Of a stretch of DNA of 37,047 nt, positions 8,902-24,206 are shown one piece after another. The notes below the pieces were generated by a model that had not been told where the DNA came from, did no database searches, and saw only the letters and a list, made by a program, of their open reading frames with translations. Numbering within the stretch: the first letter of the stretch is position 1; every line of letters starts with the position of its first letter. The DNA is from Candidatus Stahliibacteriota bacterium (lineage in GTDB: Bacteria; Hydrothermota; Tepidihabitantia; SM23-42), in NCBI GenBank assembly GCA_030609135.1, contig JAUWCU010000008.1:1-37047 (forward strand), in the 5' to 3' direction. Both the position numbers and the translations under genes were made by a program.

Positions 8902-9174
8902 TTATGCTCTTAGCGGCATCTCTATTCGTAACAAATCGTTTCCATAAACTGCTATTGCCTTGTTTGCCACAACAGGAAAATGGAACGAAAGGTATTTTGC
9001 ATAATGAACGTCACCAGCTACTGCGAACAAAATTAAACACCTTGAACTAACCCGGAGTTTTATATTCTGCTGTGAAACACCTGGCAGAACAATTTCCACG
9101 GTTAAATTGTTCATCTGTTCATCAAAATAGGTGCACATATCAGGTTCTATTTTGTGCCTAATTCTTGTTTTTAT
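8902..9174 (-). CDS. HSP20/alpha-crystallin-like protein, copy 1, apparent ATA start
   Basis: A 90-residue protein resembling an HSP20/CS domain: MNNLTVEIVLPGVSQQNIKL, SSRCLILFAVAG, FHFPVVANKAIAVYGNDLL and RIEMPLR match the strands and the terminal I-x-I/V element. It differs from the copy at 18170-18442 at only 11 of 88 aligned positions. Copy 2 starts at ATG; the aligned codon here is ATA (9174-9172), six nt behind a clean GGAGG. An in-frame ATG at 9216 has no Shine-Dalgarno and lies in a repeat-like TACTAGATGC string. The gene may therefore use ATA, use the weak upstream ATG, or have just lost its start. Unlike copy 2 it has no DUF6982-like partner. A chaperone-like role is inferred from the fold only. 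Confidence 0.65.
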   Translation of the reverse strand: MKTRIRHKIEPDMCTYFDEQMNNLTVEIVLPGVSQQNIKLRVSSRCLILFAVAGDVHYAKYLSFHFPVVANKAIAVYGNDLLRIEMPLRA

Positions 9175-9216
9175 AAAACACCTCCACGGATCTATTCTCC
9201 GTTCAAATACTAGCAT

Positions 9217-9453
9217 CTAATATCTCGAACCTAGTATCTATTTTATTCTTACGCAAATTTCATACCAGTGCAAAAGTTACGATTTTTCAACATATTGATG
9301 TGATATCGTAACGACAATCGTATGACTGATGATACGCCCTTAATCACAATTGATACACCTATGCTATATAGTTTGACGCATTAAACGTTTAAACGGATTA
9401 CCCTTACTTTGGAAAATCTGGAGGAGCCGTCTATTCTCCGGTTCCCAGACCAA
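9217..9453. other. Intergenic region between divergent HSP20-like and ABC genes
   Basis: AT-rich, with a perfect TTAAACGTTTAA palindrome at 9381-9392. The 13-mer TAAACGTTTAAAC (9382-9394) recurs at 18124-18136 beside HSP20 copy 2. A convincing promoter for the HSP20 gene was not found. Confidence 0.5.
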
Positions 9454-13170: not shown

Positions 13171-13288
13171 GGGGTCAAATCCACATTATACACGATAACG
13201 AGGGCAGGCAATAACGACAGATGATAGTCCGTTATATCGTAAATAACGAGACCAGGGATACTGGATACTAGTGGAAAATATGGCATTA
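13171..13288 (+). repeat. Family-B dispersed repeat, copy 2
   Basis: The same order as copy 1 (8466-8584), from GGGGTCAAATCC through AATAACGACAGATGATAG to GGATACTAGTGG. The 70-bp core appears identical to copy 1. Confidence 0.85.
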
Positions 13289-13301
13289 CCTTTTCTAAGA
13301 A

Positions 13302-13520
13302 ATGGAGAAAGGGAGAAAGGGAGAAACGGAGAATGGGAGAAAGGGAGACACGGGGAAAGGGAGATACGGAGAAAGGGAGATACGGGGAAAGGGAGACACG
13401 GAGGAAAGGGAGAAACGGAGAATGGGAGATACGGAGAAAGGGAGATACGGGGAATGGGAGACACGGAGAATGGGAGACACGGAGATACGGGGAAAGGGAG
13501 ACACGGGGAAAGGGAGATAA
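13302..13520. repeat. Degenerate 16-bp tandem array
   Basis: About 13 units of GGGAGAtACGGaGAAa with variation at three or four positions (A/T/C after GAGA; GAAT, GAAA or GGAAA). One unit carries an extra 8 bp, so the basic step is 8+8. The array is purine-only on one strand apart from C and T in ACGG/ATACGG. Single units occur in other spacers (for example 7963). Confidence 0.9.
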
Positions 13521-13635
13521 AAGCGTAAAGCGTAGGGCGTTGAGCGTAGGGCGTTTTTAATTATAAATTGCAGCAAATTCTAATTTACAAAACCATTCGA
13601 GATTTTAGATTTTGTAGAATGTCAAGTTGTAAATA

Positions 13636-18169: not shown

Positions 18170-18442
18170 CTACGTTCTTAATGGCATTTCTATTCGGAGC
18201 AAACCGTTTCCATATACTGCTATTGCCTGGTTGGCAACAACAGGAAAATGGAGTGAGAGGTACTTAGTATAGTGAACATCACCGGCTACTGCAAATAGAA
18301 TTAGACATCTTGAGTTTACCCTGAGTTTTATATTCTGCTGTGAAACACGTGGCAGAGCAATCTCCACGGTTAGATTGTTCATCTGCTTATCAAAATAGGT
18401 GCACACATCAGGTTCTATTTTGTGCCGGATTGTTGTCATCAT
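18170..18442 (-). CDS. HSP20/alpha-crystallin-like protein, copy 2
   Basis: A 90-residue HSP20/CS-fold protein, a close paralogue of the 8902-9174 gene (11 differences in 88 residues). Strand motifs are MNNLTVEIALPRVSQQNIKL, SRCLILFAVAGDVHY and YGNGLLRIEMPLR. In the sequence LP-G-VSQ the conserved Gly is Arg here, unlike copy 1. It starts at ATG 18442, overlapping the stop of the upstream gene as ATGA, so the two are co-translated. It is short for a small heat-shock protein, lacking a long N-terminal arm, so oligomerisation may differ. Holdase function is inferred. Confidence 0.75.
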   Translation of the reverse strand: MMTTIRHKIEPDVCTYFDKQMNNLTVEIALPRVSQQNIKLRVNSRCLILFAVAGDVHYTKYLSLHFPVVANQAIAVYGNGLLRIEMPLRT

Positions 18443-18843
18443 AAAAATGTGATCTCCTTTAATGCGTTTAAAACAGCAAAAATTCTTTCATTATTGCTTG
18501 CTTTATCAATCGGGCTGAAGAAAAAGCCCTGGCGCTGCACCGAGTACCCATTGGTGATTCCATATAGAATTTCACCGTCAAAAAATTCCACTTTTACTTT
18601 CTTACCATAAACCTTGATGCCTTTTAGATCATCGAATGATTTCTTCAATGCCGAATGACCATTACCATTCAGGTCTTTTACGAAAAAGACCGCCTTGAGT
18701 GTATTAGTTCGCACAATAACCGGTTTTTCTCCATCCCTGTTTTTAACCATAAGGTGAAACACCTCCTTATTCGGGTTAAAATCGGTTGTATAACCCCGGT
18801 CAATTGTTCCATCTAAATAGCGTACGACAACTTTGTTTAACAT
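18439..18843 (-). CDS. Small conserved protein resembling DUF6982
   Basis: A 134-residue soluble protein with two similar halves. Each opens with a small-barrel-like strand pattern: VVVRYLDGTIDRGYTTDFNP near the N-terminus and KVKVEFFDGEILYGITNGYS in the second half. A FNPNKEVFHLMV segment and an AVFFVKDLNGNG linker are also present. The pattern resembles proteins labelled DUF6982; this is from memory and moderate in certainty. The biochemical role is unknown. ATG 18843 follows AAGGAA. A TTGAAT box with a TATATA 18 nt downstream lies ahead, a weaker promoter than others here. It is coupled through ATGA to the HSP20-like gene. Confidence 0.6.
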   Translation of the reverse strand: MLNKVVVRYLDGTIDRGYTTDFNPNKEVFHLMVKNRDGEKPVIVRTNTLKAVFFVKDLNGNGHSALKKSFDDLKGIKVYGKKVKVEFFDGEILYGITNGYSVQRQGFFFSPIDKASNNERIFAVLNALKEITFL

Positions 18844-19026
18844 AATTCATTCCTTTCTTTCTTTATATACACTGAAAGACAGTTTTTATTCAACGCGATC
18901 CATGGACCAAAGACATACCATATATTTGTTATCATACTTTAGTTATATGCAAATCTTATGCCAGTATTTTCTGCTTAAATTTCAAGGGTTTTTATAAATA
19001 CTGCACAAAAATTGTGCAAAATGCCG

Positions 19027-22484: not shown

Positions 22485-24206
22485 TTAATCAGGTGTTTCA
22501 GACCACAAATAGAAAGAACCAGTGATAATGATAACGGAGTTATTGCCTGCCTTGGTTTTTAAATACTCGATTCCATTTTTCACTGATGATACAATTGTAA
22601 GGTTTTTTTGATATTTTTTCGCTCTTTTGTATAAATCGATTGGCTCCATTGCCCTTGGGTTATTTGCCTTAACAAGTAGAACTTCTTTTGCTTTTGGAAA
22701 AATGTATTTCAGGCAATATCTAATATCCTTATCTTTGTTAGTGCCAAATATTAAATAGAGATCTTTGGTATTTATAAGATTTAGATTTTTTTCCAGGGCT
22801 TCAAATGAATCCTGATTATGGGCACAGTCAAAGATTATCAAGGGTCTTTTTGTCCGTTCTCGAAGAGTCCCGCTTTGCGTGGATTCTCGGAAATACGGAA
22901 CGAGACTCTTCGGAGATATAATTTCAAATCTGCCGCGCAGGTCTATTTGTCTAATACCCTTTTGTATGGCTGGGATAGGAATTTTGAAGCCCATTTTTCC
23001 AAGTTCATTTATTACCGCAAGAGCTATGAGTAAGTTTTCAACCTGATGTTTTCCTGGCAAAGGTAAAAAGGTATCGTATTTACCGGTTTCTCCTTTAATT
23101 TTTAAATAACTGCCTTTGATTGTTTGTCTTACGATTTTAATATCATGTTGACTTTCGCCGAAAGTGATTTTATTGCGTTGTTTTTTGGCTACTCTTTTTA
23201 TTATTTGTTCTACACTCGATCGCTGGTGAATGGTAATCAATTGACTATACATAGTTTTATCCCTCTTTCTAGGTTGTCGATTTTCTGGAGTAGGGTCTGT
23301 CTGCGTGCGACGCACAGGCAGGCGTTTACGCCCGTATTTTGGGAGTGCAATGTCTTCTGACATTGCATGCAACGAGGGGACTCCCTGTATGTTTATAAAC
23401 TGACGGGGCAGGCGTTGCACTCCATATTTAACGAGCCCTGTTAAATAACAACACCAGGAATGCTTAAACTTTCTTCTACATATTGTATTTAACAGGGCGA
23501 GCCTAAAGGCTCTACTCCCAGGAAAATGGGAGTTTTTCAAAATGTCCACTTGTGGGGGAGGGAAGGGTGGGGGTTTAATAATCCCTGCTTTTTCTCGTGT
23601 GATCTGGGATAATTTATTACCTAATAGATTTGTATGGTCATAGCCGATTTTTGTTATTACTGATATTATCGGGTGTGTAACATTTGTTGAGTCGAGTCTG
23701 CCGCCCAGTCCAACTTCAAGAATTGTGAAATCGGTTTTTTCCTTTAAAAAATGCAAAAATGCAATTGTAGTAAGTACTTCAAAGTAAGTACGTGCCCCGT
23801 GAAATTCATGTTGTTTAATAGGGCTTGCCCCAGATGATTTTCTATATTTCACAGGGCGTGCGCCAACTGGTGTTTTCATATTTATGTAAGGTTTAATTTC
23901 TTTGATGTATTTATTTAATTGATGATTTGAAATTTCAATATTATTGATTTTTATTCTTTCATTTATTCTTTTAAGGTGGGGTGAGGTAAATAGTCCTACC
24001 CTGTACCCACTGGTTTCTAAACATGAACTAATCATTGCGGCAGTGGAACCTTTTCCCTTTGTTCCCGCGATATGTATGACATTATTCAGTCTTTTTTGCG
24101 GTGAGTCAAATTGTGTTAAAAATTCTATGAAGTCTTCAAGTTTGTAATCGTAACCAGGTATTTTTTCGTAATCAACCAGGGAGTTAAAAAATTCTTCAGG
24201 GTTCAC
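22485..24206 (-). CDS. folC: Folylpolyglutamate/dihydrofolate synthase with three repeat-derived insertions
   Basis: FolC adds glutamate to folates in the cytoplasm, often after making dihydrofolate. The core is intact: NVIHIAGTKGKGSTAAM (P-loop, 43-58), GLFTSPHL, TILEVGLGGRLDSTNV, ITKIGYDHTNLLG, REKAGIIK, LPLPGKHQVENLLIA, IIFDCAHN and FGTNKDKD. The predicted protein has 573 residues against about 420-440 normally. The excess falls in three blocks made of palindromic repeat DNA: about 23791-23862, 23245-23572 and 22855-22915. All stay in frame without stops. If translated they add roughly 25, 109 and 21 residues at loop-like positions. The start is GTG 24206 with TTAGGA upstream, overlapping nadC by 11 nt. 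It is the last gene of the operon. It is either functional with inserts or a recent pseudogene with an unbroken frame. Confidence 0.88.
   Translation of the reverse strand: MNPEEFFNSLVDYEKIPGYDYKLEDFIEFLTQFDSPQKRLNNVIHIAGTKGKGSTAAMISSCLETSGYRVGLFTSPHLKRINERIKINNIEISNHQLNKYIKEIKPYINMKTPVGARPVKYRKSSGASPIKQHEFHGARTYFEVLTTIAFLHFLKEKTDFTILEVGLGGRLDSTNVTHPIISVITKIGYDHTNLLGNKLSQITREKAGIIKPPPFPPPQVDILKNSHFPGSRAFRLALLNTICRRKFKHSWCCYLTGLVKYGVQRLPRQFINIQGVPSLHAMSEDIALPKYGRKRLPVRRTQTDPTPENRQPRKRDKTMYSQLITIHQRSSVEQIIKRVAKKQRNKITFGESQHDIKIVRQTIKGSYLKIKGETGKYDTFLPLPGKHQVENLLIALAVINELGKMGFKIPIPAIQKGIRQIDLRGRFEIISPKSLVPYFRESTQSGTLRERTKRPLIIFDCAHNQDSFEALEKNLNLINTKDLYLIFGTNKDKDIRYCLKYIFPKAKEVLLVKANNPRAMEPIDLYKRAKKYQKNLTIVSSVKNGIEYLKTKAGNNSVIIITGSFYLWSETPD
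22855..22915. repeat. Palindromic element inside folC (insert 3)
   Basis: CGAAGAGTCCCGCT (22861-22874) and AACGAGACTCTTCG (22899-22912) pair at 12 of 14 positions. On the coding strand it gives residues such as PYFRESTQSGTLRER between RFEIIS and RPLIIFDCAHN. Its loop GGATTCTCG..ACGGAAC resembles the spacer at about 20922-20940. Confidence 0.75.
23245..23572. repeat. Nested palindromic repeat block inside folC (insert 2)
   Basis: About 328 bp. Boundary pieces GGAGTAGGG..GGCGTTTACGCCCG (23287-23334) and CGAGCCTAAAGGCTCTACTCCC (23498-23519) match the intergenic element at 5659-5744. Within it are a CTGTCTGCGTGCGACGCACAGGCAG hairpin, a TGCAATGTC-TTCT-GACATTGCA hairpin, and a GCCCTGTTAAAT...ATTTAACAGGGC palindrome. 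The coding-strand translation is proline/arginine-rich and unlike FolC. Confidence 0.85.
23791..23862. repeat. Palindromic element inside folC (insert 1)
   Basis: GCCCCGTGAAAT near 23794 pairs with ATTTCACAGGGC near 23846. The stem and the AACAACATG-type interior resemble the GCCCTGTTAAAT palindrome within insert 2, so both may belong to one family. It adds about 25 residues between PYINMK and RTYFEVLTTIAF. Confidence 0.75.

What the first reader, a model, noticed from the sequence alone, without database searches (positions are those of the whole stretch)
9160..9220. HSP20 copy 1 has ATA where its paralogue has ATG
The two paralogues align from their first residues. Copy 2 begins ATG ATG ACA; copy 1 has ATA AAA ACA at the same place, six nt behind GGAGG. 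The body of copy 1 is free of stops and frameshifts, so either ATA is used or the loss is very recent.
Basis: partly seen in the sequence, partly recalled or inferred. Interest (0 to 1): 0.58.

Follow-up and report, generated by a model that had tools for sequence, protein, structure and literature searches.

The report
Heat-shock gene copy with ATA start
One of two near-twin small heat-shock genes in an uncultured bacterium (Ca. Stahlbacteria) has lost the usual ATG start codon (now ATA) but keeps a strong ribosome-binding site and an intact, selectively maintained body, so it is most likely still translated weakly from ATA, as a few other bacterial genes are.

Summary
Copy 1 (window 9174-8902, - strand) has ATA AAA ACA exactly where copy 2 (18442-18170, -) has ATG ATG ACA, six nt behind GGAGG, with no stop or frameshift. 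Copy 1 is not a recent duplicate: it branches outside the clade of copy 2 and its orthologues in two sister species (support 90-94%). Its branch evolved under strong purifying selection (omega 0.05; neutrality rejected, 2dlnL 13.4). Relatives have ATG (one probably GTG) at or near this site, and a sister gene reads ATG AAG ACA, so ATG changed to ATA. The SD before ATA is among the strongest 4% of a genome sample (-13.2 kcal/mol), against -3.8 for the in-frame ATG 9216. The same genome starts infC at ATC behind a similar SD, and relatives use ATT/ATC there, so near-cognate AUH starts are used in this lineage; ATA is not used generally. Best reading: weak AUA initiation driven by an extended SD, as shown for S. 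aureus infC, ccpN and citZ. Very recent silencing, use of ATG 9216 or a consensus error remain possible. New member of a known kind; modest interest.

The parts
8902..9174 (-). HSP20-like copy 1 body, ATA (9174-9172) to TAA; 90 codons
   Evidence: intact frame, 88% aa identity to copy 2, omega 0.05 on its branch
9172..9174 (-). ATA at the site of the ancestral ATG start codon
   Evidence: relatives have ATG (G008a probably GTG) here or within a few codons; G001a has ATG AAG ACA
9181..9187 (-). Shine-Dalgarno sequence GTGGAGG (core GGAGG 9185-9181, pairing continues into TG of the six-nt spacer)
   Evidence: -13.2 kcal/mol with the 16S tail GAUCACCUCCUUU found in this genome; stronger than 96% of first-ATG sites
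9214..9216 (-). alternative in-frame ATG, 14 codons upstream, directly after TAG
   Evidence: SD -3.8 kcal/mol; expected by chance 23% of the time
9253..9267 (-). sigma-54-type -24/-12 promoter-like site TGGTATGAAATTTGC of copy 1
   Evidence: one of only two matches in the window, the other being before copy 2's operon; sigma-54 factor encoded in the genome
9188..9244 (-). leader of copy 1 with two predicted hairpins, the second ending just before the SD
   Evidence: z-score -3.45 against dinucleotide shuffles; SD and ATA predicted mostly unpaired
18170..18442 (-). HSP20-like copy 2, ATG ATG ACA start
   Evidence: orthologues in G001, G002, G003
18439..18843 (-). DUF6982 gene that overlaps copy 2 by 4 nt (ATGA)
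   Evidence: PF22478, E 4e-26
18949..18963 (-). sigma-54-type promoter-like site TGGCATAAGATTTGC of the DUF6982-copy 2 operon

Best explanation
Copy 1 is a real, long-standing paralogue of a minimal small-heat-shock protein, probably transcribed from its own sigma-54-type promoter. Its start codon mutated from ATG to ATA, and ribosomes most likely still initiate there with fMet at reduced efficiency because a strong extended SD (GGAGGUG, spacing 6) positions AUA in the P site, as on infC mRNA of the same genome. Shown: the ATG-to-ATA change relative to relatives, the intact and constrained body, the strong SD, the near-cognate infC start site. Inferred: transcription from the sigma-54 site, actual initiation at AUA, and the lowered yield.
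For: Homology of ATA to the ATG of relatives; the RBS CGTGGAGGTGTTTTATA lines up without gaps on CGTGGAGGTGATTTATG of the paralogue G001b. Copy 1 branches before the copy 2/G002/G003 split, yet omega on its branch is 0.05 and omega = 1 is rejected with 2dlnL 13.4. SD energy -13.2 kcal/mol, top 4% of 450 long-ORF first-ATG sites, while ATG 9216 has -3.8 and ATG 9138 has -1.6. infC starts at ATC in G000 and G002 and at ATT in other relatives with similar SDs; in G028 and G030 a TAG directly precedes the ATT, so no upstream NTG can be used there. AUA starts with extended SDs were mapped in S. aureus (infC, ccpN, citZ); ccpN and citZ reporters gave about 10-30% of AUG yield (PMC13009471).
Against: No expression data. 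ATA after an SD is not enriched in 0.98 Mb of this genome (0.72-fold, against 5.4-fold for ATG), so this would be a gene-specific exception. No orthologue of copy 1 was found that could show the ATA conserved: the one sister genome with the flanking ABC genes and readable upstream DNA (G001) lacks the copy, and G002 and G003 show no such copy. One consensus base of a draft metagenome assembly carries the whole claim.
Confidence: 0.58

Rival explanations
1. Copy 1 lost its start codon very recently and is a nascent pseudogene, not translated in any useful amount; copy 2 carries the function.
For: An almost redundant second copy exists with normal ATG; ATA is a poor start; the copy is absent at this locus in G001 and not found in G002 or G003, so it is dispensable in relatives.
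Against: omega on the copy-1 branch is 0.05, no higher than the background 0.19, and no other lesion exists, so loss would have to fall in the last small fraction of the branch.
Confidence: 0.2
2. Translation starts at the in-frame ATG 9216 and adds 14 residues (MLVFERRIDPWRCF) to the N terminus.
For: It is the only canonical start upstream of the body, it is in frame, and its second and third bases are predicted unpaired.
Against: SD only -3.8 kcal/mol (59% of sampled genes do as well or better); the ATG sits at the edge of a stable hairpin; such an in-frame ATG is expected by chance in 23% of shuffled leaders; no relative has an N-terminal extension of this length; in the partly alignable leader of G016 the equivalent ATG opens a 10-codon frame that ends before the gene.
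Confidence: 0.14
3. The A at the third start position is a consensus or assembly error, or a minority allele, and the gene begins with ATG.
For: The genome is a 170-contig draft, no reads are available, and a single base decides.
Against: The surrounding leader and body differ from every other copy, so the locus is not a chimera of known copies; single-base errors are rare in well-covered assemblies (general knowledge).
Confidence: 0.08

Closest known systems
AUA start codons of infC, ccpN and citZ in Staphylococcus aureus (PMC13009471)
   Same: AUA start with a strong SD (extended SDs reported for infC and ccpN); citZ's AUA is confined to one strain lineage, as copy 1's is seen in one genome here
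   Different: There initiation was mapped by Ribo-Ret and tested with reporters; here it is inferred from sequence, and the gene is a small-heat-shock paralogue
infC near-cognate start (AUU in E. coli; ATT/ATC in this lineage)
   Same: AUH codon behind a GGAGGTG-type SD in the same genome
   Different: infC's near-cognate start is conserved across relatives and is known in E. coli to serve autoregulation by IF3; copy 1's ATA is seen in one genome only
Minimal archaeal-type small heat shock protein, S. solfataricus Hsp20.1 (PDB 4rzk)
   Same: Alpha-crystallin domain of about 90 residues, TM-score 0.86, profile E 8e-11
   Different: About 25% identity, from an archaeon; no chaperone test here

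Membership tests
HSP20 / small heat shock proteins (PF00011) | alpha-crystallin domain by sequence profile | tested here: met
   Copies 1 and 2 alone give no Pfam match; 11 of 16 aligned family members match PF00011, best E 1.4e-9; family profile hits sHsp structures, best E 8e-11
HSP20 / small heat shock proteins (PF00011) | alpha-crystallin fold | tested here: met
   Model of copy 2, pLDDT 93; best PDB match S. solfataricus Hsp20.1 ACD, TM 0.86
HSP20 / small heat shock proteins (PF00011) | holdase activity and oligomer formation | not testable with these tools
   needs protein
Genes with near-cognate AUH start codon and strong SD | near-cognate codon at the homologous start site, with no NTG at that site | tested here: met
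Genes with near-cognate AUH start codon and strong SD | strong SD at normal spacing | tested here: met
   -13.2 kcal/mol; spacings of 4-6 nt are the most frequent for ATG, here 6
Genes with near-cognate AUH start codon and strong SD | near-cognate start conserved among orthologues | tested here: inconclusive
   no orthologue of copy 1 found in three sister species
Genes with near-cognate AUH start codon and strong SD | initiation shown at that codon | not testable with these tools
   needs ribosome profiling or N-terminomics
Pseudogene | relaxed selection or further lesions | tested here: not met
   omega 0.05 on the branch, omega = 1 rejected; no stop or frameshift; a loss in the last few percent of the branch would not show
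sigma-54-dependent promoters | TGGYAY-N5-TTGC upstream, and a sigma-54 factor in the genome | tested here: met
   two matches in the window, both before HSP20 copies; Sigma54_DBD E 7e-48. The motif alone is not enriched genome-wide over control spacings
sigma-54-dependent promoters | transcription dependent on sigma-54 and an enhancer-binding activator | not testable with these tools
   needs RNA data

The most novel reading that the evidence does not exclude
The ATA is a selected throttle: the two small-heat-shock copies share sigma-54-type control, but copy 1's yield is set by IF3-sensitive AUA initiation, tying one chaperone paralogue to the state of the initiation machinery as infC itself is tied.
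Probability: 0.1. Interest if true: 0.55.

Novelty: new member of a known kind. Interest (0 to 1): 0.3.

Why it matters
If AUA is used, gene callers that accept only NTG starts either miss this protein or give it a false 14-residue N terminus. It would add a small-heat-shock gene from an uncultured phylum to the short list of likely AUA-initiated bacterial genes, with a built-in ATG-started paralogue as control. It also records that the AUU/AUC start of infC extends to this lineage.

Tried and rejected
General ATA start usage in this genome: rejected, no enrichment of ATA after SD in 0.98 Mb. RNA thermometer at the copy-1 RBS: no support, GGAGG stays about 80% unpaired from 20 to 65 C in the model. 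Leader of copy 1 as an interspersed repeat: only short, weak further matches in the genome, and CCGGAGAATRGACRG occurs only at 9441-9427. Start at in-frame ATG 9138 (codon 13): SD -1.6 kcal/mol, and it would remove the near-invariant E10 and invariant P11. Shared leader between copy 1 and copy 2: none detectable. Leader homology with G016 is suggestive only (p about 0.001 by 2-mer block shuffling). Structure from the single sequence was useless (pLDDT 38); the 16-sequence alignment gave a good model. Hecht et al. 2017 on all 64 start codons is not held in the library.

Full report
What was checked. The sequence at 9160-9220 is as described. On the minus strand it reads TAG ATG CTA GTA TTT GAA CGG AGA ATA GAT CCG TGG AGG TGT TTT ATA AAA ACA AGA ATT AGG CAC; ATA is 9174-9172 and GGAGG is 9185-9181, six nt before it. 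Copy 2 reads ATG ATG ACA ACA ATC CGG CAC. The two bodies align without gaps over all 90 codons, 88% identical as protein, with dN about 0.06-0.07 and dS about 0.5-0.7.

What the gene is. The window belongs to a 2.56-Mb draft genome whose nearest named records are MAGs of Candidatus Stahlbacteria. Neither copy matches Pfam alone, but 11 of 16 family members match PF00011 HSP20, the family profile finds small heat shock proteins in the PDB (best 4rzk, E 8e-11), and the modelled fold (pLDDT 93) matches the S. solfataricus Hsp20.1 alpha-crystallin domain at TM 0.86.

Where the two copies come from. Copy 2 lies behind a DUF6982 gene (4-nt overlap) and has orthologues in three sister species, 72-93% identical. 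Copy 1 lies before an ABC-transporter pair; in G001 the same ABC genes have no HSP20 copy upstream, in G003 the contig ends there, and G002 gave no match to those ABC genes. In the tree copy 1 falls outside the clade of copy 2, G002 and G003a (support 0.94 by FastTree, 90 by IQ-TREE), so the copies parted before those species did, or copy 1 came from a related lineage.

Selection. A branch codon model on copy 1, copy 2, G002, G003a and G001a gave omega 0.05 on the copy-1 branch against 0.19 elsewhere; omega = 1 on that branch is rejected (2dlnL 13.4) and the profile limit at 3.84 lies between 0.15 and 0.2. The first two codons were left out. Copy 1 was a working protein gene for nearly all of its separate history. 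The test cannot see an event in the last few percent of the branch.

The start codon. Almost all relatives in the alignment have ATG at the homologous place or one codon later. Two need comment: G025 begins a few codons further upstream, with ATG, and G008a most likely begins at a GTG at the homologous place (GGAGGTGAAGCA GTG GCT GCG ATG), read. The closest informative sister gene, G001a, begins ATG AAG ACA ACA ATC. Copy 1's ATA AAA ACA AGA ATT is therefore ATG-to-ATA by one base change. Its RBS also lines up without gaps on that of the paralogue G001b: CGTGGAGGTGATTTATG against CGTGGAGGTGTTTTATA.

Which start is used. With the 16S tail of this genome (GGATCACCTCCTTT in the DNA) the SD before ATA scores -13.2 kcal/mol, as strong as the best 4% of 450 first-ATG sites; ATG 9216 scores -3.8, ATG 9138 -1.6, copy 2 -9.1, infC -16.0. 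The leader folds better than its shuffles (z -3.45), leaving SD and ATA mostly open. An in-frame ATG before the first upstream stop is expected in 23% of shuffled leaders.

Precedent in the lineage. infC of this genome reads GGGAGGTGACG ATC AAA CAA ATT CCA; the other relatives whose start could be read have ATT (ATC in G002) at the same place, and in G028 and G030 a TAG stands directly before the ATT. A GTG in frame two codons before the ATC in G000 overlaps the SD and is absent in G001 and G003, so it is unlikely to be the start. So ribosomes of this lineage very probably start at AUU/AUC behind a strong SD, as is known for infC elsewhere. By contrast ATA is not enriched behind SDs in 0.98 Mb of the genome (0.72-fold; ATG 5.4-fold), so no general use of ATA is claimed. 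In S. aureus, AUA starts of infC, ccpN and citZ were mapped, and reporters of ccpN and citZ gave about 10-30% of the AUG yield (PMC13009471).

Transcription. TGGYAY-N5-TTGC, the core of a sigma-54 promoter, occurs twice in the window, before copy 1 (9267-9253) and before the copy-2 operon (18963-18949). Similar sites precede several relatives (G001a, G002, G004, G008b, G016), and the genome encodes sigma-54. The chance of such a site in a given 100 nt is below 0.001 from its genome rate, although the motif as such is not enriched genome-wide over control spacings. That it is used is inferred.

Verdict. Copy 1 is a constrained paralogue with a derived ATA start. Weak AUA initiation is the best reading (0.58), followed by very recent silencing (0.20), use of ATG 9216 (0.14) and a consensus error (0.08). 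It is an instance of a known but rare kind of start codon.

Noticed in passing
L153 (G000:C82 near 74,900) and L155-L175: infC starts at ATC in G000 and G002 and at ATT in the other relatives that could be read, behind a strong SD; a TAG directly precedes the ATT in G028 and G030.
   Followed up: yes
L043 8549-8577 (G002:C21): In G002 the DUF6982 gene is cleanly missing, so the sigma-54-type -12 box ends 13 nt before ATG ATG: a predicted nearly leaderless mRNA for the copy-2 orthologue.
   Followed up: partly
L046, L047, L052 upstream of the HSP20-like genes: The second group of these genes (G003b, G001b, G016) has long leaders with inverted repeats ending just before an extended SD, as copy 1 does.
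   Followed up: partly
window 22485-24206 (-): A folylpolyglutamate-synthase-like Mur ligase gene carries an unusual in-frame stretch of roughly 110 residues between its N-terminal and middle parts.
   Followed up: no
window 13186-13576, both strands: Short tandem-like repeats give long overlapping open frames on both strands, probably an intergenic repeat array rather than genes.
   Followed up: no
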